From Betaproteobacteria bacterium (lineage in GTDB: Bacteria; Pseudomonadota; Gammaproteobacteria; Burkholderiales; Rhodocyclaceae), in contig WQYQ01000014.1 in assembly GCA_009781175.1 (NCBI GenBank), positions 1 through 64,000 on the forward strand: a DNA stretch of 64,000 nucleotides. The letters are read 5' to 3'. Position numbers and translations under genes: made by a program. The notes under the pieces are model-generated. The model was not told the origin of the DNA. It saw only the letters and a program-made list of their open reading frames with translations, and did no database searches. Below, in pieces: positions 3,756 to 40,380 of the stretch. Positions within the stretch are counted from its first letter, which is position 1. Each line of letters opens with the position of its first letter.

Positions 3756-4859
3756 TTAGATCCGCATCGGCATCACGACGTATTTGAAGCATTCGTCGTT
3801 GGGCAAGGTAATCAAAGCGCTTGAATTGCTGTCGTTGAGTCGCAGTTCGACTTCATCGACATGCGTGTTGGTCAGCACATCAAGCAGGTAGGTGACATTG
3901 AAGCCAATATCGACGCCTTCTCCGGCATAGTCGACTTCGAGTTCTTCCTGCGCTTCTTCCTGCTCGGCGTTGGTGCTGAGAATTTTCAGGCTGCCTTCGG
4001 CGAGCACGATTCGAACGCCACGGAACTTTTCGTTAGTGAGAATCGCCGCGCGCTGTAATGAAGCAAGCCAGGCAAGTCTCCCCAGACGAATGAGTTTCGG
4101 ATGCCCTTTCGGGATGACGCGTTCGTAATCGGGGAATTTGCCGTCGATGAGCTTGGTAATCAACTCGATCGGGCCGAAACGGAAACGCGCCTGGTTGCCG
4201 GCGAGCGAGATTTCGAGCGGTTCGTCACTATCGGCAAGCTGGCGGCTGAGTTCGAGAACCGTCTTGCGCGGCAAAATGACTTCCGCCTTGGGCATTTCGC
4301 CTTCGACAGCGGCACTCGCGAATGCGAGGCGGTGGCCGTCGGTGGCAACCATGCGCAGTTCGGATTCCTGCACCATCAAAAGCAGGCCATTGAGGTAGTA
4401 GCGGATGTCCTGCGCGGCCATCGCATACGAAACCTGGGCAAGCTGATGCTTGAAGGCTTTTTGCGAGACGTTAATCGTGACCGCTTCGGCTTCGTTGAAC
4501 TGCATGCGCGGGTAATCGCTCGCAGGAAGCGTCTGAAGCTGGAAACGGCTTTTTCCGGCGTGCAGCGAAAGCCGGCTGCCGTCGAGCTTGAAACTGACTT
4601 CCATGCCTTCCGGCAGCGCGCGTAGGATGTCCTGCAGCTTGCGCGCACCAACCGTCAAACTCGCGTCTTCGCTCCCGCTTGCCGTGCCATGCGTGCGGAT
4701 CTGAATTTCGATATCCGTCGCCAATAGCGTAAGTACGCCGCCCTTTTTATCGATCAGGACGTTGGAAAGAATCGGCAGGGTATGCCGCTTCTCGACAATG
4801 CCCGAAACCGACTGCAAGGGAGCCAGCAGCGCTTCGCGCGTAGCTGTTAACAGAAGCAT
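3756..4859 (-). CDS. dnaN: DNA polymerase III subunit beta (sliding clamp)
   Basis: 367 aa; C-terminal KYVVMPMRI; position next to dnaA and gyrB. Confidence 0.97.
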   Translation of the reverse strand: MLLLTATREALLAPLQSVSGIVEKRHTLPILSNVLIDKKGGVLTLLATDIEIQIRTHGTASGSEDASLTVGARKLQDILRALPEGMEVSFKLDGSRLSLHAGKSRFQLQTLPASDYPRMQFNEAEAVTINVSQKAFKHQLAQVSYAMAAQDIRYYLNGLLLMVQESELRMVATDGHRLAFASAAVEGEMPKAEVILPRKTVLELSRQLADSDEPLEISLAGNQARFRFGPIELITKLIDGKFPDYERVIPKGHPKLIRLGRLAWLASLQRAAILTNEKFRGVRIVLAEGSLKILSTNAEQEEAQEELEVDYAGEGVDIGFNVTYLLDVLTNTHVDEVELRLNDSNSSALITLPNDECFKYVVMPMRI

Positions 4860-5429
4860 TTAAGTAAACTCCTATTATTAGTAAACGTCGTCCATATTTT
4901 GTGGATAAGTTGTTTTCTTTTTTTAGAATCAAAAACTTATACCACTCTATAAGATGTTGAAAAGAGGTTTTGAAAGCGCTACAACAAGTGGGGATATTTT
5001 TTCATCTGTTTCAATCGATAAGGCTTATCCCCAAACCCTGCTCAATTTTTACTGCCGTGAATCCACAACCGAAGATGTGGATTTTGCTTTTGAAATCTGT
5101 CCGTGAATCACCAAAAACTCGTCCCGCCAACCTTGCCATGAATGGAGGGGCTTGTGCTCAATTCGTGGTCAGGATGTTTTCCGGTTTTGGTTTTTCAGTT
5201 AACTGTTTCTTGTAAACATATAACTACTATTAGTAATGTTCGGACGATTTCTGTGGGTAAGTAAAAATAATGTTTTAAATACAGTAATTTAGTTCGGTTC
5301 AAAGGCTGTCGAAAAGATGCGTATGCTTACCTGCGGTGTTTTGGATGATTTTTGAAAACGGCATTGCAAGCATGCTTGTCCCCATTTGGTTCCTGTGTCT
5401 TTCCACGCTTAATTCACAAAAACAGCTTT
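4860..5429. other. oriC: Candidate oriC (dnaA-dnaN intergenic region)
   Basis: DnaA-box-like 9-mers TGTGGATAA (4900-4908), TTATCCCCA (5025-5033), TGTGGGTAA (5252-5260), TGTGGATTT (5076-5084); AT-rich stretches and near-repeat CTATTATTAGTAA (4872-4884)/CTACTATTAGTAA (5224-5236). Confidence 0.65.
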
Positions 5430-6905
5430 TTAACCCCGCAAAGTCTGTATCAGCACATGGATATCATGGTTGAGTTGCTGATCCGCGAGGCGTAGATCTA
5501 TGATCGTGCGGCAGGCGTGTAGGACTGTTGTGTGGTCGCGTCCGCCGAAGGCTTCGCCAATCGCGGGTAGGGATGCGGGTGTCAGTTCCTTGGCGAGGAA
5601 CATTGCGACCTGACGAGGCCGAGCGATCGCGCGCGTGCGTTTTTTCGAATGCATGTCCGCGACTTTGATCTTGTAGTAATCGGACACGGTTTTTTGAATC
5701 AGTTCGAATGTGATCTGGCGGTTGTGGGCAGCGAGCAGGTCGCGCAGCGCTTCCTTCGCGAGTTCGAGGTTGATTTCGCGGCCGTGGAAGCGGGCGAAGG
5801 CAAGCACTTTTTTCAATGCGCCTTCGAGTTCGCGCACGTTTGAGCGGAGATTTTTCGCGATCAGAAATGCCACATCGTCGCCGAGTTCTATGCGTTCAAC
5901 TTCGGCTTTCTTCTTGAGAATCGCGACGCGCATTTCAAGTTCGGGCGGTTCGATTTGAACCGTCAAACCCCAGTCGAAACGGGAAATCAGGCGGTCTTCC
6001 AGACCCGCAACATCTTTCGGATAGGTGTCGCAAGTGATCACGATCTGCTTGCGCGCCTCGGTCAAGGCGTTGAAAGCATGGAAGAATTCTTCTTGAGTCC
6101 GGTTTTTGTTGTTGAAGAACTGGATATCGTCGATCAGCAGTAGATCGAGCGAACGGTAATAGCGCTTGAACTGATCGAAGCTTTTCTGCTGGTAGGCGCG
6201 CACGACATCGGCGTAGTAATCCTCCGCATGCACGTAGCGGATGACGGTTTTAGGATTGGCTCGCCAGACAGCATTGCCGAGCGCGTGAATCAGGTGGGTT
6301 TTCCCCAGGCCGACGCCGCCATAGACGAAGAGCGGGTTGTAGCTGGTGCCGGGGTTCTGCGAAACCTGCATTGCCGCGGCGCGGGCCAGATCGTTAGCAC
6401 GGCCGGTAACGAGATTATCGAAGGTGAAATCGGGGTTCAGGCGTGTCCGTTCGTAAGCTGGGCTCTGGTCTTCTTCGTGTGTGTTTTCGCGGATGCTGGC
6501 CGCGGGTGTTTTTTTCGCCGTAGCTTGGCTGGCGTTTTCCTGGACTTCGGCGGCGGGCGGTGCTGTTAAGGCCACAGGCTTTGGCGCCGGATTTGTTTTG
6601 GGAGGCGTGGCGCCCAAGGCAAGCTTGATCGTCACAGGTTCGCCAAAAAATTCGCTGCCGATTTCTTCGATGCGGCGCAGGTAACGTTCCCGCACCCATT
6701 GCAGGACAAAACGGTTCGGAGCCAGCAGTTGGAAGCTGCGCGGATCGTCGCTTCGGGAAGAGGTAAGCGCCCGAATCCATGTGTTGAACTGCTGTGGAGG
6801 CAGCTCGGATTCCAAGCGGGCAAGACAGGAAGGCCAGAACTCGTGATTCACGTTTGGTGGGGAGATTCCTTTGTCTGGAGTGCTTAAATCCCGCACGGCA
6901 GACAT
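5430..6905 (-). CDS. dnaA: Chromosomal replication initiator protein DnaA
   Basis: 491 aa; [19 protein letters not shown] Walker [11 protein letters not shown] Walker [19 protein letters not shown]-binding signature. Confidence 0.98.
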
Positions 6906-9543: not shown

Positions 9544-10876
9544 ACGGATCGCCGCGATTGCCACCGCGCCCGGGCGTGGTGGCATCGGGGTGGTTCGGCT
9601 CTCCGGGCCTAATCTGGCGGTTCTCGCCAAAAGCTTGACGGGTAAGCTTCCCACACCGCGTCAGGCGCATTTCACCAAATTTCTCGACGCATCAGGCCAG
9701 CCTATCGATGCCGGCCTGATGTTGTTTTTCCCCGCGCCGCATTCTTATACCGGCGAAGACGTGCTTGAGTTGCAAGGGCATGGCGGCCCGGTCGTGATGC
9801 AAATGCTGCTCGCGCGCTGCCTCGAACTTGGTGCGCGTCTGGCGCGTCCCGGAGAATTCACCCAGCGCGCGTTTCTGAATGACAAGCTCGATCTGGCGCA
9901 GGCGGAAGCCGTTGCTGATTTGATCGATGCGGATACTTCGGCTGCGGCGCGTTCGGCTTTGCGCTCCCTGGATGGCGAGTTTTCGCGCCGGATTCATATT
10001 TGGTGTGAGAAGTTGATCAACCTGCGGATGCTGGTCGAAGCGACCTTGGATTTCCCGGAAGAAGAGGTCGATTTTTTACGCGTGGCAAAAGCTTTCGAGC
10101 ATCTTGAGTCACTGCTTAAATCATTAGAAAAACTGCTCAAGCAGTCAAAACAAGGCAGTTTGCTGCGCACGGGCTTGCATGTCGTTTTGGCGGGGCAGCC
10201 CAATGTTGGCAAGTCGAGTTTGTTGAACTGCCTTTCCGGCGAGGATCGGGCAATCGTGACCGAAGTCGCCGGCACGACGCGCGATGTGCTACGCGAGACG
10301 ATCCAGATTGAAGGCATTCCGCTGCACATCATCGACACCGCGGGTTTGCGCGATACCGAAGACACGATCGAGCGGATCGGCATCGCCCGGACCTGGAAAG
10401 AAATCGAACGGGCCGATTTGATTTTGCGTCTGGTCGATGCCCGAGTGGGCGTCTCCGCGGAAGATCACGCGATCGATAGCCGCTTGCCGAGCGACGTGCC
10501 CGTTCTCTGGGTCTTCAACAAAATCGATCTAGTTGGAATGCAGGCCGGAAAAGTCGAAAGCGACACGGGAACCTGGATTCGCCTTTCCGCGCTAAGTGGA
10601 AACGGTGTCGATTTGCTGCGCAGCGAGTTGTTGCGGGTAGCGGGTTGGGAAGCGCACGGAGAAGAAATATTTTTGGCGCGTGAGCGACATCTCGAAGCGC
10701 TTCGGGAAGCGCACGGGCATGTTCTTCAAGCGATCGCACATGCTTCAAATGATATGCTCGATTTGATGGCGGAAGAATTGCGTCTTGCCCAAGAAGTGGT
10801 CAATCGAATCACGGGCGCTTTTAGCGCCGACGATCTCCTGGGGGTTATTTTTTCCCGGTTTTGTATTGGGAAATGA
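9521..10876 (+). CDS. mnmE: tRNA modification GTPase MnmE (GTG start proposed; track ORF from 9476)
   Basis: [35 protein letters not shown]-terminal FCIGK. Confidence 0.95.
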
Positions 10877-10902
10877 TCCAATGCCTATGTGTTGCATCCC
10901 AT

Positions 10903-13296
10903 ATGAATAAGCAGGCGCTCAGCGAGCGCGATATCTGCACAAAATTCATCACACCAGCCCTGGAAAAGGCTGGATGGGACGTGCTAACCCAGGTGCGCGA
11001 AGAGTTTCTGCTGACCAAGGGTCGCATCATCGTGCGTGGCAAGTTGCACACCCGCGCCCAGCACAAACGTGCTGACTATGTGCTGTTCCATAAACCCAAT
11101 CTTCCCATCGCCGTTATCGAAGCCAAAGACAACAAGCACACCATCGGCGCGGGCATGCAGCAGGCTCTCGGCTATGCCGAAATGCTGCAAGTGCCATTCG
11201 TGTTCAGCAGCAATGGCGATGGCTTTCTATTCCACAACAAGATCGCCAAGGATGGCGTCATTGAGCGCGAACTGGCCCTGTACGAGTTTCCCAGCGCTGA
11301 AATGCTATGGCAATGGTGGACCGAGCACCAAGAGTTGAGCACCCAGCAGCAGGCGCTGGTCACTCAGGACTATTACAGCGACGGCAGCAACAAGACGCCT
11401 CGCTACTACCAGTTGCTTGCCATCAACAAGACCGTCGAAGCGATTGCCAAGGGACAGCAACGCATCCTGCTGGTGATGGCCACCGGTACCGGAAAAACCT
11501 ACACGGCTTTCCAGATCATCTGGCGTTTGTGGAAGTCACGCGCCAAGAAGCGCATCTTGTTCCTGGCTGACCGCAACATTCTGGTCGATCAAACGATGAC
11601 CAACGACTTCAAGCCCTTCGGCGCGGCCATGACCAAGATTCAAAAGCGGCAGGCCAACAAGTCGTATGAGATCTATCTGTCGTTGTATCAGGCCGTTACC
11701 GGAACCGAAGAAGACAAAAACATCTACAAGCAGTTCAGTCCCAAATTCTTCGACCTGATCGTCATCGACGAATGCCATCGCGGCAGTGCCGCTGAAGACT
11801 CCGCCTGGCGCGAAATCCTGGAGTACTTCCATTCCGCCACGCAAATCGGCCTGACCGCGACGCCCAAGGAAACCAGGGAAGTTTCCAACATCGACTATTT
11901 CGGCGAGCCCATCTACACCTACTCGCTGCGCCAGGGCATCGACGACGGCTTTCTTGCGCCCTACAAAGTGGTGCGCATCGATCTGGACAAGGATCTGACC
12001 GGCTGGCGTCCCGACAAGGGCATGCTCGACAAACACGGCAACGAGATCGAAGACCGCATCTACAACCAGCGCGATTTTGACCGCGCCCTGGTGCTGGAGC
12101 AACGCACGCAACTGGTCGCGCGCAAGATCACCGAGTACCTGAAAGCCACCAACCGCTTCGACAAGACCATCGTCTTTTGCGACAACATCGACCATGCCGA
12201 GCGCATGCGCCAGGCGCTGGTCAATGAAAACGCCGATCTGGTTGCGCAGAGCCATCGCTATGTCGTGCGCATCACCGGCGATAGCGAAGAAGGCAAGAAA
12301 GAACTGGACAACTTCATCTTTCCGGAAAGCGATTACCCGGTAATCGCCATCACATCCAAGCTGATGACCACCGGCGTCGATGCCCAGACCTGCAAGCTGA
12401 TCGTACTGGACCAGCGCATCCAGTCCATGACCGAATTCAAGCAGATCATCGGCCGGGGCACGCGCATCAACGAAGACTTCGGCAAGTACTGGTTCGCCAT
12501 CCTCGATTTCAAGAAAGCAACCGAGCTTTTCGCCGACCCCAGCTTCGACGGCGATCCGGTGCAGATCTACGAGCCCGGTCCCGGCGATCCGCCCGTTCCG
12601 CCGGAAGAGGAAGCGGACGAAGCTTCCTCGTCTGATGAAGACTTCACCTATCCCACGGCGGACGACAACCCCACGTCCCCCGGCGGCGTGGCCGAGCCGT
12701 TGCCGGGCGAGGAAGGCAGCAGCGTGCGCCGCTACGTTGTCGCCAATGTTGAAGTCAAGGTCGTGACCGAACGCGTGCAGTACTTCGACGCCAACGGTAA
12801 GCTGATTACCGAATCGTTAAAGGACTACACCCGCAACACCTTGGCCAAGGAATTCGCCTCGCTTGACGATTTCCTGCGCCGTTGGGGCAAGGCCGAAAAG
12901 AAACAAGCCATCATCGACGAACTGGCCAACCAGGGTGTCTTCTTTGACGCCTTGGCCGAAGAAGTGGGCAAACAATCCGGCAAGGATTTCGACCCCTTCG
13001 ACCTCCTGTGCCATGTAGCCTGGGATCAACCCCCGCTCACGCGCAAGGAACGCGCCGAGCAGGTCAAGCAGCGCCATTACTTCGCCAAGTACAGCGAGCA
13101 AGCGCAAAAGGTACTCGAAGCCCTGCTCGACAAATACGCCGACGAAGGCGTGGCCGCCATCGAGGAAACGCAGATTCTCACCATCGCCCCGTTCAACTGT
13201 CTGGGCACGCCGATCGAACTAATCCGCGCCTTCGGCGGCAAGGATCAATATCAACAGGCCGTCAACGAACTCGAACAAGAGCTTTACCGCGCCTGA
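10903..13296 (+). CDS. hsdR: Type I restriction endonuclease subunit R (DEAD/DEAH helicase; EcoEI-like)
   Basis: [65 protein letters not shown]. Confidence 0.93.
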
Positions 13297-13312
13297 GCAG
13301 AACTAAACATCC

Positions 13313-14791
13313 ATGTCACTTGCAACCCTCATCAAAGCCATCCAGGACATCATGCGCAAGGATGTCGGCGTCGATGGCGACGCCCAGCGCATCAGCCAGA
13401 TCTGCTGGCTGTTGTTCCTGAAGATCTTCGACGACAAGGAGCAGGAATGGGAACTCACCCAGCCCGGCTACCGCTCGCCGCTGCAAAGCCGCTTTCGCTG
13501 GAACAACTGGGCCAAAAACCCGGAAGGGGATACCGGCGAAGAACTGATCGACTTCGTCAACAACGACCTCTTCCCAGCCCTGAAACAGCTTGCTTACAAG
13601 GCGATCCCATCCCCGCAAGGCCGCGTAATCGGCTCGGTATTCGAGGACGCCTACAACTACATGAAATCCGGCACGCTGCTTCGCCAAGTCATCAACACCA
13701 TCGAAGAAGACGTGGATTTCAACAAATCCGGCGACAGGCACCTGTTCAACGACATCTACGAAAAAATCCTCGCCGATCTGCAATCGGCCGGCAATGCTGG
13801 TGAGTACTACACCCCACGCGCGGTCACACAATTCATGGTCGACATCCTCGACCCGAAACTGGACGAGAGCCTTCTCGACCCGGCCTGCGGCACGGGCGGT
13901 TTCCTGACCTGTTCCATCGAACATCTGAAGAAGCAGGTCAAAACACCGGAAGACAACCGACGACTACAAGAGAACATCCACGGCGTCGAAAAGAAACCCC
14001 TGCCGCACATGCTGGCCATGACCAACATGATGCTGCACGGCATCGACGTGCCTACCCGTATCCGCCACAACAATACGCTCTCGCGCCCGTTCAAGGACTA
14101 CGGTCCGCACGACCGCGTGGACATCATCGTCACCAACCCGCCGTTCGGCGGCATGGAAGAGGACGGCATCGAAAAGAACTTCCTTGCCAAGCACCAGACC
14201 CGCGAAACCGCCGACCTGTTCATGGCGCTGATCATGCATCGGCTCAAGCACGACACCGGCCGCGCCGCCGTGGTGCTGCCCGATGGCTTCCTGTTTGGCG
14301 AAGGGGTGAAAACCACGCTCAAGCGCGAACTGCTGGAAGAATTCAATCTGCATACCATCGTGCGGCTGCCCAAAGGCGTGTTCGCTCCCTACACCGGCAT
14401 CGCCACCAACATCCTGTTCTTCGAGAAAGGCGGCCCCACGCAAGACGTATGGTTCTTCGAGCATCCTTACCCGGAAGGCTACAAAAGCTACTCCCGCTCC
14501 AAGCCGCTGACCATCGAAGAATTCGAGCGCGAAAAAGCCTGGTGGGGCGACCCGCAGCGCCAGGGCCGCAAAACCACCGAGCACGCCTGGAAAGTCTCGG
14601 CCAAGGAAATCGCCGCCCGCAACTACAACCTCGACTGCAAAAACCCGCACGAAGTAGCCATCGAACTTGGCGACCCTGACGAACTGATGGCCGAGTACCA
14701 GGACATCACCCGCCAATTGCAAGCCGCCCAACAGGCACTGAAGGCCGAACTGCTGGCGGCACTCAGAGCCACGAGCGGAGAACAGGCATGA
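13313..14791 (+). CDS. hsdM: Type I DNA methyltransferase subunit M
   Basis: 492 aa; GEYYTPRAVTQFMVDIL, DPACGTGGFL, TNPPFGG. Confidence 0.96.
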   Translation: MSLATLIKAIQDIMRKDVGVDGDAQRISQICWLLFLKIFDDKEQEWELTQPGYRSPLQSRFRWNNWAKNPEGDTGEELIDFVNNDLFPALKQLAYKAIPSPQGRVIGSVFEDAYNYMKSGTLLRQVINTIEEDVDFNKSGDRHLFNDIYEKILADLQSAGNAGEYYTPRAVTQFMVDILDPKLDESLLDPACGTGGFLTCSIEHLKKQVKTPEDNRRLQENIHGVEKKPLPHMLAMTNMMLHGIDVPTRIRHNNTLSRPFKDYGPHDRVDIIVTNPPFGGMEEDGIEKNFLAKHQTRETADLFMALIMHRLKHDTGRAAVVLPDGFLFGEGVKTTLKRELLEEFNLHTIVRLPKGVFAPYTGIATNILFFEKGGPTQDVWFFEHPYPEGYKSYSRSKPLTIEEFEREKAWWGDPQRQGRKTTEHAWKVSAKEIAARNYNLDCKNPHEVAIELGDPDELMAEYQDITRQLQAAQQALKAELLAALRATSGEQA

Positions 14792-15912
14792 CCTCCCGCC
14801 TGCCGACTGATTACCCCGCGCTGCTGGCCGACATCAAGCAGCGCGTGCGCCGCGCCCAAACACGGGCCATGCTGGCGGTCAACGCCGAATTGATCCGCCT
14901 CTACTGGGACATCGGTGCCCTCATCCACACCCGCCAGCAACAACAGGGCTGGGGGGCTGGCGTCATTCCCCGGCTGGCGAAAGACCTGCACAACGAACTG
15001 CCGGAAGAAAAAGGCTTCTCCGAGCGCAACATCAAGCGCATGTTGGCCTTCTACCGCGAATACCCGCATCTGGGCGCAAGCGCTGCAAAAGTGCCACAAC
15101 CGGTGGCACAAATCACCGAGGCCGAAAAAGTGACACAGCCTGTGTCACAAATGCCGGAAGGGCAGGACGCGCCTGCCTATCCGCCAGAGTTGCTCCTGGC
15201 GCTGCCTTGGGGCCACCACGTCGAACTGATGAACAAGGTGAAAGACCCCGCCACACGCCAGTGGTACATACGCACCGCCATTGAAAACGGCTGGAGCCGC
15301 AACATCCTCCTGATGCAGATCGAAACCGCTGCGCATCGTCGGCAAGGCAAGGCTGCCAGCAATTTCGCCCTGCGTCTGCCCGCGCCGGAATCCGATCTGG
15401 TGCAGCAAACCCTCAAGGACCCCTACCTGTTCGACTTTCTGACGTTGGAAGCAGGTTTCCACGAGCGCGAACTGGAAACCGGACTCATCGCCCACCTGGA
15501 AAAATTTCTGCTCGAACTCGGCCAAGGTTTCGCCTTCGTCGGGCGGCAATACCACCTCGATCTGGAAGGCGACGACTTCTACATCGACCTGCTGTTCTAC
15601 CACCTGAAGCTACGCTGCTATGTGGTCATCGACCTCAAGCGCGGCAACTTCAAGCCGGAATACGCAGGCAAGATGAATTTTTATTGCAATGTCGTGGACG
15701 ACAAACTGCGCCACGAAAGCGACAAACCCACCATCGGCCTGATCCTGTGCCAGCAACCCAACCGCGTGCTGGCCGAATATGCGCTACGCGGCGTGGACAA
15801 GCCCATCGGCGTTTCCAGCTTCGAGTTGACCCGTGCATTACCGAAAACGCTGAAAAGCAGCCTGCCCAGCATCGAACAGATCGAGCGCGAACTGGGGGGC
15901 GGGCATGAATAA
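14788..15912 (+). CDS. DUF1016/YhcG-family PDDEXK nuclease domain protein
   Basis: 374 aa; NAELIRLYWDIGALIHTRQQQQGWG...IPRLAKDLHNELPEEKGFSERNIKRMLAFYREYP; ALPWGHHVELMNKVKD; C-terminal FYIDLLFYHLKLRCYVVIDLK. Confidence 0.9.
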   Translation: MTSRLPTDYPALLADIKQRVRRAQTRAMLAVNAELIRLYWDIGALIHTRQQQQGWGAGVIPRLAKDLHNELPEEKGFSERNIKRMLAFYREYPHLGASAAKVPQPVAQITEAEKVTQPVSQMPEGQDAPAYPPELLLALPWGHHVELMNKVKDPATRQWYIRTAIENGWSRNILLMQIETAAHRRQGKAASNFALRLPAPESDLVQQTLKDPYLFDFLTLEAGFHERELETGLIAHLEKFLLELGQGFAFVGRQYHLDLEGDDFYIDLLFYHLKLRCYVVIDLKRGNFKPEYAGKMNFYCNVVDDKLRHESDKPTIGLILCQQPNRVLAEYALRGVDKPIGVSSFELTRALPKTLKSSLPSIEQIERELGGGHE

Positions 15913-17674
15913 GCGCACCGCCGAATTGCTTGAAAGGCACTTCGAGGTCGCTTTTGCCGCGCCCGACGGCATCAAGAAGCTGCGCGAACTGATCCTCACG
16001 CTGGCCATGCAAGGCCGGCTAGTGGCGCAAGACCCGAAGGATGCGCCGGCCAGCGAGCTGCTGAAGGAGATCGAAGCCGAGAAACAGCGGCTGGTGAAAG
16101 AGGGAAAGATCAAACCGCCCAGGTTGTTGCCACCGATTAAGGAAGAGGAAAAGCCTTATGCGTTGCCGCAGGGGTGGGAGTGGGTACGTTTTGGAGAAAT
16201 TACTCAGCACAACTCTGGCAAAACTCTTGATGGCGGTAGAAATACTGGACTTCCGAGGAAGTACATCACCACGTCGAATGTCTACTGGGGGAAATTCCAG
16301 CTCAATAACGTCCGGGAAATGCTAATTCGTGAAGACGAGCTAGATAAATGCTCGGCACGTAAAGGAGACTTGCTCATCTGTGAAGGTGGAGAGGCTGGAC
16401 GCGCTGCTGTCTGGGAGCTGGCTGAAGAAATTTGTTTCCAGAACCACGTGCATCGTGCCCGGTTCTACAAAGACGTTAATCCATATCTGGCCTATCGATT
16501 CTTCGAAAAGATTAACGCTAGCGGGGAAATAAATAATTATAGAAAAGGGGTCGGAATATCGAATATGTCGAGCAAGGCACTTGCCTCGATCGTCTTCCCC
16601 TTGCCTCCAAAGTCGGAGCAACACTGCATTGTTGCCAAGATCGACGAACTGATGGTGCGTTGCGACGAGCTGGAAAAACTGCGCGCCGCGCAGCAGGAAA
16701 AGCGCCTTACTGTCCATACCGCCGCCATCAAGCAACTGCTGAACATCGCCGAACCCGATCAGCACCAGCGCGCGCAAACCTTCCTCGCCGAACACTTCAG
16801 CGAGCTTTACACCGTCAAGGAAAACGTCGCCGAGCTACGCAAGGCCATCCTGCAACTGGCGGTAATGGGCAAGCTTGTTCCGCAAAACCCGGACGATCAG
16901 CCAGCTAGCGAGCTGCTGCAAGAGATCAAGGCCGAGAAACAGCGGTTGGTGCTGGCAAATAAGATCAAGGGGCCCAAGCTAGGACCTTCAATCGATCAAG
17001 AAGATGAGCCATTTCCTGTTCCTGATAATTGGTGGTGGGTGAGGATTGCCGAGCTTGCGGAGTCCATAGATTACGGAACGTCACAGAAAACTTGTGATGA
17101 TTCCTCACTTGTTCCTGTTTATCGAATGGGAAATATTGTCGACGGTCGGTTGATCGACGAAGGATTCAAGTACATTTCGCCAGAAATCGACGATCTGCCT
17201 CGTCTCTTTCTTCAACCAAACGATATTCTTTTTAACCGCACGAACAGCTATGAGCTGGTTGGAAAGTCAGCACGATACACAGGCCAAGCCGAGCAGGCGA
17301 CCTTTGCATCTTATTTGATAAGGGTTAGATTACATGACGCGTTACTGAATCCGGTCTTCATGAGTTTGGCTATGAATGCACCCTATTTCAGATCAACTCA
17401 AATCGAACCTGAAATTGTTCAACAGTGTGGACAAGCAAACTTTAATGGTACGAAGCTTTCCCTTTGTGCTGTTCCACTTCCTCCATTTGCGGAGCAACAC
17501 CGCATCGTCGCCAAAATCGACCAATTGATGACGCTTTGTGACTCACTGGAGCAGCACATTGACAAGACTGCCCTTAAGCAAACCGAGCTGCTGAATGCTC
17601 TGGTTCATGCCCAATCACAGAATAAACATGAAAAACCGAAGTCCGTTGCGGAAGCCTTACCCCAACCAGCCTGA
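15905..17674 (+). CDS. hsdS: Type I restriction enzyme specificity subunit S
   Basis: 589 aa; two target-recognition halves each closed by PP(K/F)xEQHxIVAKIDxLMxxCDxLE. Confidence 0.94.
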   Translation: MNKRTAELLERHFEVAFAAPDGIKKLRELILTLAMQGRLVAQDPKDAPASELLKEIEAEKQRLVKEGKIKPPRLLPPIKEEEKPYALPQGWEWVRFGEITQHNSGKTLDGGRNTGLPRKYITTSNVYWGKFQLNNVREMLIREDELDKCSARKGDLLICEGGEAGRAAVWELAEEICFQNHVHRARFYKDVNPYLAYRFFEKINASGEINNYRKGVGISNMSSKALASIVFPLPPKSEQHCIVAKIDELMVRCDELEKLRAAQQEKRLTVHTAAIKQLLNIAEPDQHQRAQTFLAEHFSELYTVKENVAELRKAILQLAVMGKLVPQNPDDQPASELLQEIKAEKQRLVLANKIKGPKLGPSIDQEDEPFPVPDNWWWVRIAELAESIDYGTSQKTCDDSSLVPVYRMGNIVDGRLIDEGFKYISPEIDDLPRLFLQPNDILFNRTNSYELVGKSARYTGQAEQATFASYLIRVRLHDALLNPVFMSLAMNAPYFRSTQIEPEIVQQCGQANFNGTKLSLCAVPLPPFAEQHRIVAKIDQLMTLCDSLEQHIDKTALKQTELLNALVHAQSQNKHEKPKSVAEALPQPA

Positions 17675-17675
17675 T

Positions 17676-17797
17676 TGACTACGAGTCGAGCGCAAGCCCC
17701 GCCATTTATGGCGGGGTCAGCGAGACAAACGTTATAGGCGCCGTAGGCGCCACCGATCCGTGGCGAAGAAGCCCCAAGCTTCAGCTTGGGGGAATTC
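17676..17797 (+). mobile_element. Orphan IS200/IS605-like right-end / omegaRNA-scaffold-like hairpin cluster (no transposase or TnpB ORF)
   Basis: Hairpins CCCCGCCAT-TT-ATGGCGGGG (17697-17716), GGCGCC-GTA-GGCGCC (17737-17751), CCCCAAGCT-TC-AGCTTGGGG (17772-17791) followed by GGAATTCAC. Confidence 0.45.
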
Positions 17798-18107
17798 ACG
17801 GCATTCAGCCGAGGGATGAACGGATCATCTCCGATATGCGCGAGAACTGGCACGAGAGGAAGGCGCGTTTTTCATCCGCCAAGCTTGGTCGATGGCTTGA
17901 CTGGTTACGTAGCGAAAAGCTTGTCCCTCGCGGGTTACCTCCGAAAACCATATAACAGGCTGGGCCAATATCGATAAGTGTTAATGTGATGGCTGGGCCG
18001 GCCGTTCACTATTTCAATGGCTATCAGGACTTTTGGGTTCAAGACGGGCCATTTATATCAATGGCATAGATTATTAATTTCGGCGCACTATCTGAAAGTG
18101 ACTTCAC

Positions 18108-24245: not shown

Positions 24246-24457
24246 GAACCTGCTCATAATCTTAATGCGAGGCTATAACGCCACGAGTTTGGGGCGTCTT
24301 CGCTGCCCAGGTTGTCTCGCTTGCGCTTAATCTATGGTCATTCTGCGCGGAGCGAAGCGCAGTCGCAGAATCCACTCTCGGAGGACAACTGGATTCTGCG
24401 ACTTCGCGCAGAATCACAACGCGGGGGCGGGAGGGTTTGGAACCTGTTCATAATCTT
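24246..24457. repeat. Dispersed palindromic repeat element, copy 1
   Basis: Core GGTCATTCTGCGCGGAGCGAAGCGCAGTCGCAGAATCCACTCTCGGAGGACAACTGGATTCTGCGACTTCGCGCAGAAT; flanked by GAACCTGCTCATAATCTT (24246-24263) and GAACCTGTTCATAATCTT (24440-24457). Confidence 0.85.
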
Positions 24458-40202: not shown

Positions 40203-40380
40203 GAACCTGTTCGTAATCTTACTGCGAGGCTGTAATCGGGGCTCATGCTCGACTCACGGTCATTCTGCGCGGAGCGAAGCGCAGTCGCAGAATCCACTCT
40301 CGGAGGACAAATGGATTCTGCGACTTCGCGCAGAATGACGACGCGGAGGCGGGAAGGCTTGGAAGCTGTTCATAATTCTT
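40203..40380. repeat. Dispersed palindromic repeat element, copy 2
   Basis: Core CGGTCATTCTGCGCGGAGCGAAGCGCAGTCGCAGAATCCACTCTCGGAGGACAAATGGATTCTGCGACTTCGCGCAGAAT nearly identical to copy 1; flanked by GAACCTGTTCGTAATCTT and GAAGCTGTTCATAATTCTT. Confidence 0.85.

What the first reader, a model, noticed from the sequence alone, without database searches (positions are those of the whole stretch)
5057..5171. Diverged copy of the 17.7-kb hairpin element embedded inside the putative oriC
On the minus strand, 5171->5057 reads TGACCACGAATTGAGCACAAGCCCCTCCATTCATGGC...CCACATCTTCGGTTGTGGATTCACGGCA. The plus strand at 17676-17801 reads TGACTACGAGTCGAGCGCAAGCCCCGCCATTTATGGC...CCCCAAGCTTCAGCTTGGGGGAATTCACGGCA. 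The first 37 nt match at 31/37, similarity continues into GGT..GCG.GAC, and both end with a hairpin followed by ATTCACGGCA after almost the same length (115 vs 122 nt). The hairpin of the oriC copy contains the DnaA-box-like TGTGGATT. A selfish-element remnant therefore appears to be built into the origin region, or an origin-derived sequence was copied elsewhere.
Basis: partly seen in the sequence, partly recalled or inferred. Interest (0 to 1): 0.6.

Follow-up and report, generated by a model that had tools for sequence, protein, structure and literature searches.

The report
Dead jumping-DNA remnant inside replication origin
A short jumping DNA element, present in about 80 or more copies in this bacterium and apparently spread by an IS200/IS605-type single-strand mechanism, left a decayed 65-base copy inside the chromosome's replication origin, while other copies sit in frame inside conserved genes.

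Summary
The similarity is real, but the finding's boundaries are wrong. 17676-17799 is one of about 80-95 copies in this genome of a 120-nt element that follows a TGAC target. All six congeners lack it. Its anatomy is that of a non-autonomous IS200/IS605-type element (PATE-like): subterminal hairpins, no terminal inverted repeats, no target duplication, insertion 3' of TGAC, and guides (CAAG, GAAG) that fit the cleavage sites (TGAC, TCAC). A three-copy subfamily changes all four sites together. In-gene copies prove exact insertion: joining the flanks with one TGAC restores protein domains. At least six conserved genes carry the element as a stop-free, in-frame insert of about 40 residues, as with Rickettsia palindromic elements.

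The oriC copy most likely spans 5167->5103 (65 nt, internally deleted, right hairpin lost), not 5171->5057. Its first 58 nt (counted from TGAC) score 59.6 bits (best shuffle -11.9); the right end scores 16.3 bits at 5103 versus 7.7 at 5057. Removing 65 nt restores congeneric oriC spacing (102 versus 101-112 in five of six). The DnaA-box hairpin and second ATTCACGGCA appear native. Congeneric oriCs lack the element. It looks like a decayed passenger in an oriC spacer; origin function is untested and the mobilising transposase unidentified.

The parts
4860..5429 (.). dnaA-dnaN intergenic region, putative oriC
   Evidence: dnaN 3756-4859 and dnaA 5430-6905, both minus; consensus DnaA box TTATCCACA at 4900 and one-mismatch boxes at 5025 and 5252; aligned with six congeners
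5103..5167 (-). decayed, internally deleted copy of the element in oriC (65 nt); left-end similarity 5171-5114 counted with the target TGAC, right end GGTGATTCAC at 5112-5103
   Evidence: LE58 59.6 bits, right end 16.3 bits at 5103; absent from six congeneric oriCs; spacing argument
5168..5171 (-). TGAC, target / left cleavage site of the oriC copy
   Evidence: position equivalent to the target-derived TGAC of other copies
5131..5154 (-). left guide CAAG (5154-5151) and broken left hairpin CCCCTCCATTCATGGCAAGG (5150-5131) of the oriC copy
   Evidence: alignment to the family
5060..5083 (.). AATCCACAACCGAAGATGTGGATT, DnaA-box-like hairpin; read here as native oriC, not part of the element
   Evidence: TGTG[A/G] box aligned in five of six congeners; weak match of the element end at 5057
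17680..17799 (+). full-length 120-nt element just downstream of hsdS
   Evidence: family of about 80-95 copies; CM 140 bits
17676..17679 (+). TGAC, target / left cleavage site
   Evidence: target-derived in other copies
17693..17716 (+). left guide CAAG (17693-17696) and left hairpin CCCCGCCATTTATGGCGGGG (17697-17716)
17737..17751 (+). middle hairpin GGCGCCGTAGGCGCC
   Evidence: covarying pairs
17768..17799 (+). right guide GAAG (17768-17771), right hairpin CCCCAAGCTTCAGCTTGGGG (17772-17791), right cleavage site TCAC (17796-17799)
24265..24340 (-). weak, probable derivative without the left hairpin, next to a palindromic repeat
   Evidence: CM 18.8 bits, E=0.007

Best explanation
The repeat family is a transposase-less element of the IS200/IS605 type (a PATE-like MITE). 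A Y1/HUH transposase acting in trans would bind the left and right hairpins on one DNA strand; the tetranucleotides 5' of the hairpins (CAAG, GAAG) would select the cleavage sites TGAC (left flank, kept in the target) and TCAC (right end of the element); the excised single strand would insert 3' of a TGAC exposed on single-stranded DNA, without target duplication. One copy landed in the oriC spacer about 27 bp from the conserved GTTAAC next to the AT-rich block. It then lost its middle and right hairpin and its left hairpin decayed, so it is now an immobile 65-bp passenger (5103-5167). Shown here: the family, its boundaries, the target-derived TGAC, exact insertion without duplication, the guide/cleavage fit, and absence from congeneric oriCs. 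Inferred: the enzyme, movement through single-stranded DNA, and the neutrality of the oriC copy.
For: About 80-95 dispersed copies, none in six congeners. Conserved ends TGAC|CACG...TCAC| without terminal inverted repeats, with subterminal hairpins that covary. Guide/cleavage table: TGAC with CAAG in 44, TCAC with GAAG in 53 of 89 aligned copies; a three-copy subfamily has TGAA with CAAT/TAAT and GAAT with TCAA/TCGA, and GAAT/TCAA is the right guide/site pair of IS608 (PMC5934647). Eight copies follow directly after ...GCAGAATGAC of another repeat whose uninserted copies also end in TGAC. In-gene copies: joining the flanks with one TGAC restores Pfam domains across the junction, and congeneric RibD and antiporter lack the insert. 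oriC copy: LE58 59.6 bits and right end 16.3 bits at 5103; absent from congeneric oriCs; removing 65 nt gives a 102-nt spacer versus 101-112 in five congeners.
Against: No autonomous element with these ends was found and no enzyme is assigned; one carrier genome (G243) has no significant Y1 transposase hit. Five termite-gut copies have GAAG on the left with TGAC, which does not fit the simple guide rule. The three-copy subfamily may be a single event. Strand bias expected for lagging-strand targeting is not significant (57 of 95, p=0.06). A full-length alignment of the oriC copy to 5057 still beats most shuffles.
Confidence: 0.83

Rival explanations
1. The oriC copy is a full-length diverged element (5171->5057) whose right hairpin evolved into, or supplied, the DnaA-box pair, so the element was co-opted as an origin part.
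For: Colinear alignment of the 3' 57 nt to the family scores -6.3 against a shuffle mean of -20.9, with 3 of 300 shuffles reaching it; the covariance model aligns end to end.
Against: The right end scores much better at 5103 than at 5057. The box at 5060-5067 is present in five of six congeners without the element. Removing 111 nt would leave a 56-nt spacer, outside the range of all congeners.
Confidence: 0.12
2. The copies are moved by the genome's REP-associated tyrosine transposase (RAYT) and are a REP/REPIN-like family, not an IS200/IS605 derivative.
For: Y1 ORFs of RAYT-like size occur in several carrier genomes (own 230 aa, G043 251 and 257 aa, G223 283 aa).
Against: Guides are CAAG/GAAG instead of the REP tag GTAG; four-base cleavage sites at both ends differ from the CT/CA dinucleotide cuts described for REPs (PMC8266576). 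No element ends were found near the own RAYT gene (L040).
Confidence: 0.2
3. The element is a functional non-coding RNA or guide RNA (omega-RNA/HEARO type) family spread over the genome, and the oriC copy is an RNA gene.
For: Strong fold, z=-7.5 on the sense strand, and covarying hairpins.
Against: No Rfam match at gathering or relaxed thresholds; no TnpB zinc-ribbon protein in five carrier genomes; the outer stem is not in the cross-genus consensus; the fold is equally strong as DNA; the oriC copy folds no better than shuffles.
Confidence: 0.05
4. An origin sequence was copied to the 17.7-kb site and elsewhere.
For: None beyond the similarity itself.
Against: Congeneric oriCs lack the block, and the oriC copy is among the most degraded of about 80-95 copies.
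Confidence: 0.01

Closest known systems
PATEs, palindrome-associated transposable elements (Haloquadratum; PMC3119063)
   Same: Too short for a transposase, no terminal inverted repeats, subterminal palindromes, no target duplication, relation to IS605-type ends, frequent internal (core) deletions.
   Different: Found in Betaproteobacteria; no parent IS found; several copies are open, in-frame inserts in conserved genes; one copy lies in oriC.
IS608 and relatives (IS200/IS605 family; PMC5934647)
   Same: Insertion 3' of a tetranucleotide kept in the left flank; guides 5' of subterminal hairpins; the subfamily pair GAAT/TCAA equals IS608 GR/CR.
   Different: No tnpA or tnpB in the element; target TGAC (or TGAA) instead of TTAC; 120 nt long.
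Rickettsia palindromic elements (RPE; reviewed in PMC10969869)
   Same: Elements of about 100-150 bp inserted in frame and open in unrelated conserved genes.
   Different: Different host group; no sequence relation tested; here the ends point to a transposition class, which I recall no evidence for in RPEs.
REP/REPIN with TnpA_REP (RAYT; PMC8266576)
   Same: Dispersed palindromic repeats thought to be moved by a Y1 transposase in trans.
   Different: No GTAG tag; two different hairpins with separate guides; also found within genes.

Membership tests
PATE (non-autonomous IS200/IS605-type element) | too short to encode a transposase | tested here: met
   120 nt
PATE (non-autonomous IS200/IS605-type element) | no terminal inverted repeats but near-terminal palindromes | tested here: met
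   CACG...TCAC ends; left and right hairpins covary
PATE (non-autonomous IS200/IS605-type element) | no target duplication | tested here: met
   single-TGAC joins restore domains; congeneric RibD uninterrupted
PATE (non-autonomous IS200/IS605-type element) | ends related to an IS605-type transposon | tested here: inconclusive
   guide/cleavage logic fits, but no parent transposon with these ends found
IS200/IS605 insertion sequence | encodes TnpA (Y1/HUH) | tested here: not met
   no ORF between the ends; Y1 genes lie elsewhere
IS200/IS605 insertion sequence | insertion 3' of a fixed short target chosen by guides | tested here: met
   target-derived TGAC; guide/site table with coordinated change in three copies and some exceptions
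REP/REPIN (RAYT-mobilised) | GTAG tetranucleotide at the hairpin foot | tested here: not met
   CAAG and GAAG
Rickettsia palindromic element | in-frame, open insertion in protein genes | tested here: met
   six genes with the domain across the junction, plus sigma factor and DnaX
Rickettsia palindromic element | sequence membership in an RPE family | not tested
   no RPE sequences were compared; only the behaviour is alike
omega-RNA / HEARO | match to the RNA family and associated nuclease | tested here: not met
   no Rfam match; no TnpB zinc ribbon; IscB not searched
functional oriC part | conserved in related oriCs | tested here: not met
   absent from six congeners

The most novel reading that the evidence does not exclude
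A guide-coded single-strand transposon derivative that spreads by inserting as an in-frame, stop-free 40-residue segment into conserved genes would be an RPE-like 'coding' selfish element with a readable transposition mechanism. That would suggest testing whether Rickettsia RPEs move the same way. The oriC copy would be one landing at transiently single-stranded origin DNA.
Probability: 0.35. Interest if true: 0.65.

Novelty: new variant of a known kind. Interest (0 to 1): 0.42.

Why it matters
For oriC the lesson is modest: a selfish element can sit in an origin spacer, close to the conserved AT-rich block, without obvious harm. The family matters more. It links guide-directed IS200/IS605-type ends with in-frame insertion into conserved genes, a behaviour best known from Rickettsia palindromic elements, for which I recall no known mobiliser. 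Because the guides and cleavage sites can be read, target choice and transposase dependence become directly testable.

Tried and rejected
Rfam at gathering and relaxed thresholds: no family. Plasmid collection: no match. Pfam on the two short ORFs overlapping the copies: nothing significant. Known RNA or guide RNA: rejected as above. Autonomous element with tnpA between matching ends: none in the held stretches; only expanded variants of about 190 nt. Replication-strand bias of copies: not significant. Three calls were malformed (41, 42, 45). Literature searches for a PATE or MITE inside oriC, or for IS605-type MITEs with in-frame insertion, gave no clear precedent, but the library is open-access only and I read few hits.

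Full report
Observation. The dnaA (5430-6905, minus) and dnaN (3756-4859, minus) genes bound a 570-bp intergenic region. On its minus strand, 5171->5114 matches the start of the element family at 45 of 58 consensus positions. The match is not chance: 59.6 bits against a maximum of -11.9 in 500 shuffles of oriC. Infernal with a model built without this copy gives E=2e-4 over 64 kb. The family's right end reads GGGG[TC]GA[TC]TCAC. In the oriC stretch the best match is GGTGATTCAC at 5103 (16.3 bits; 1 of 2000 shuffles as good). A full-length alignment to 5057 still scores above most shuffles (3 of 300 reach it), so I keep it as a rival.

Independent evidence on the boundary. Aligning the dnaA-dnaN region with six congeners shows that the block is absent in all of them, and that the TGTGGATT box at 5060-5067 aligns with TGTG[A/G] boxes in five of six. 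The distance from the conserved GTTAAC (5198) to the conserved TTTGGGGA (5028) is 167 nt here and 101, 112, 112, 112, 112 and 173 in the congeners. The 173-nt spacer of G003, which carries no element (LE58 score -30.9), shows that spacer length is tolerated. The oriC copy therefore looks like a degenerate, internally deleted insertion: the right hairpin is gone, the left hairpin is broken, and its 69-nt sequence folds no better than shuffles.

The family. A covariance model found 120 matches at E<=0.01, about 86 of them at 50 bits or more (my count). It is absent from six congeners and from 34 other relatives at the BLAST level. By an exact right-end pattern it occurs in only 4 of 299 genomes of the taxonomic family. 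In the named collection it occurs in termite-gut Betaproteobacteria MAGs, HGW-Betaproteobacteria-7, and one MAG labelled Desulfobulbus (that the isolate names mean termite gut is my knowledge). It is thus patchy and probably horizontally acquired (inference).

Mechanism read from anatomy. Copies align as TGAC|CACG...CAAG-hairpin...hairpin...GAAG-hairpin-YGAYTCAC|. In IS608 (PMC5934647) the left site TTAC pairs with guide AAAG and the right site TCAA with guide GAAT; insertion is 3' of TTAC, which stays in the left flank. By the same pairing, TGAC fits CAAG and TCAC fits GAAG. Of 89 aligned copies, 44 carry TGAC/CAAG and 53 carry TCAC/GAAG. A three-copy subfamily carries TGAA with CAAT or TAAT, and GAAT with TCAA or TCGA, so all four sites changed together. 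Three copies are probably one event. Exceptions exist: five termite-gut copies have GAAG on the left with TGAC.

TGAC belongs to the target. Eight copies follow directly after ...GCAGAATGAC, the end of a second palindromic repeat, and copies of that repeat without the element also end in ...GCAGAATGAC followed by unrelated sequence. For in-gene copies, joining left flank + one TGAC + right flank gives an uninterrupted reading frame in which the Pfam domain crosses the junction: AMP-binding_C (1-76 of 76), GST_N_2 (1-69 of 70), Na_H_antiport_3 (2-418 of 419), the P-type ATPase hydrolase domain, Lactamase_B and RibD_C. Congeneric RibD (five genomes) and antiporter (one genome) lack the insert at that position. 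So insertion is precise and without target duplication.

In-frame insertions. In these genes the element is present as a stop-free, in-frame segment of about 40 residues: RibD is one 442-aa open frame and the antiporter one 465-aa frame. Similar open inserts lie in an ECF-type sigma factor (a 78-nt version) and in a DnaX homologue, where the junction falls between Pfam domains. This is how Rickettsia palindromic elements behave (PMC10969869). The canonical 120-nt length is itself a multiple of three, and TGA cannot be a codon of an active gene, which limits the possible phases, so part of the frame preservation comes free. Translation of the inserts is not shown.

Structure. Left, middle and right hairpins keep pairing with changes on both sides across genera; the outer stem seen in own copies is not in the cross-genus consensus. 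The fold is stable as DNA as well as RNA, which fits single-strand recognition without any need for an RNA function. No Rfam family matches.

Gaps. The mobiliser is unknown. The own genome has an IS200-like TnpA and a RAYT-size Y1 protein, neither with these ends near it. No TnpB zinc ribbon occurs in five carriers. One carrier genome (G243) lacks a significant Y1 protein. Strand bias is not significant (57 of 95, p=0.06). Any effect on origin function is untested; nothing suggests one. The genome is a 44-contig assembly of about 95% completeness, so absence statements about it are limited.

Verdict. The oriC feature is a decayed copy of a non-autonomous IS200/IS605-type element in an unusual place. 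The family, with readable guides and coding-compatible insertions, is the more interesting object. I call it a new variant of a known kind (PATE-like) because of the combination of guide-coded ends with RPE-like in-frame insertion; each part alone is known.

Noticed in passing
window 24337-24417 and 40259-40339; many other loci: A second palindromic repeat of about 80 nt, GTCATTCTGCG...CGCAGAATGAC, occurs in many copies; its TGAC end is the landing site of eight copies of the element.
   Followed up: partly
own genome C1:179746, C1:192896, C32:8750 (L116, L120, L114): Copies whose left-hairpin segment looks inverted (GTCTCGCTGACCCCGCC... instead of GTCGAGCGCAAGCCCCG...), as if flipped at short inverted repeats.
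   Followed up: no
own genome C20:23806, C24:30540, C2:40201 (L125, L119, L021): Expanded copies of about 190 nt with roughly 66 extra nt between the two ends.
   Followed up: no
window 10861-17674: A type I restriction-modification gene set (hsdR-, hsdM-, DUF1016- and hsdS-like ORFs, named from sequence by eye) lies between mnmE and mnmG; the 17.7-kb element copy starts just after the hsdS stop codon.
   Followed up: no
L128 1990-2124 (own genome C1:269190-269313): A copy of the TGAA subfamily lies inside what reads like a type III DNA methyltransferase gene; the upstream part is out of frame, so that gene may be broken.
   Followed up: no
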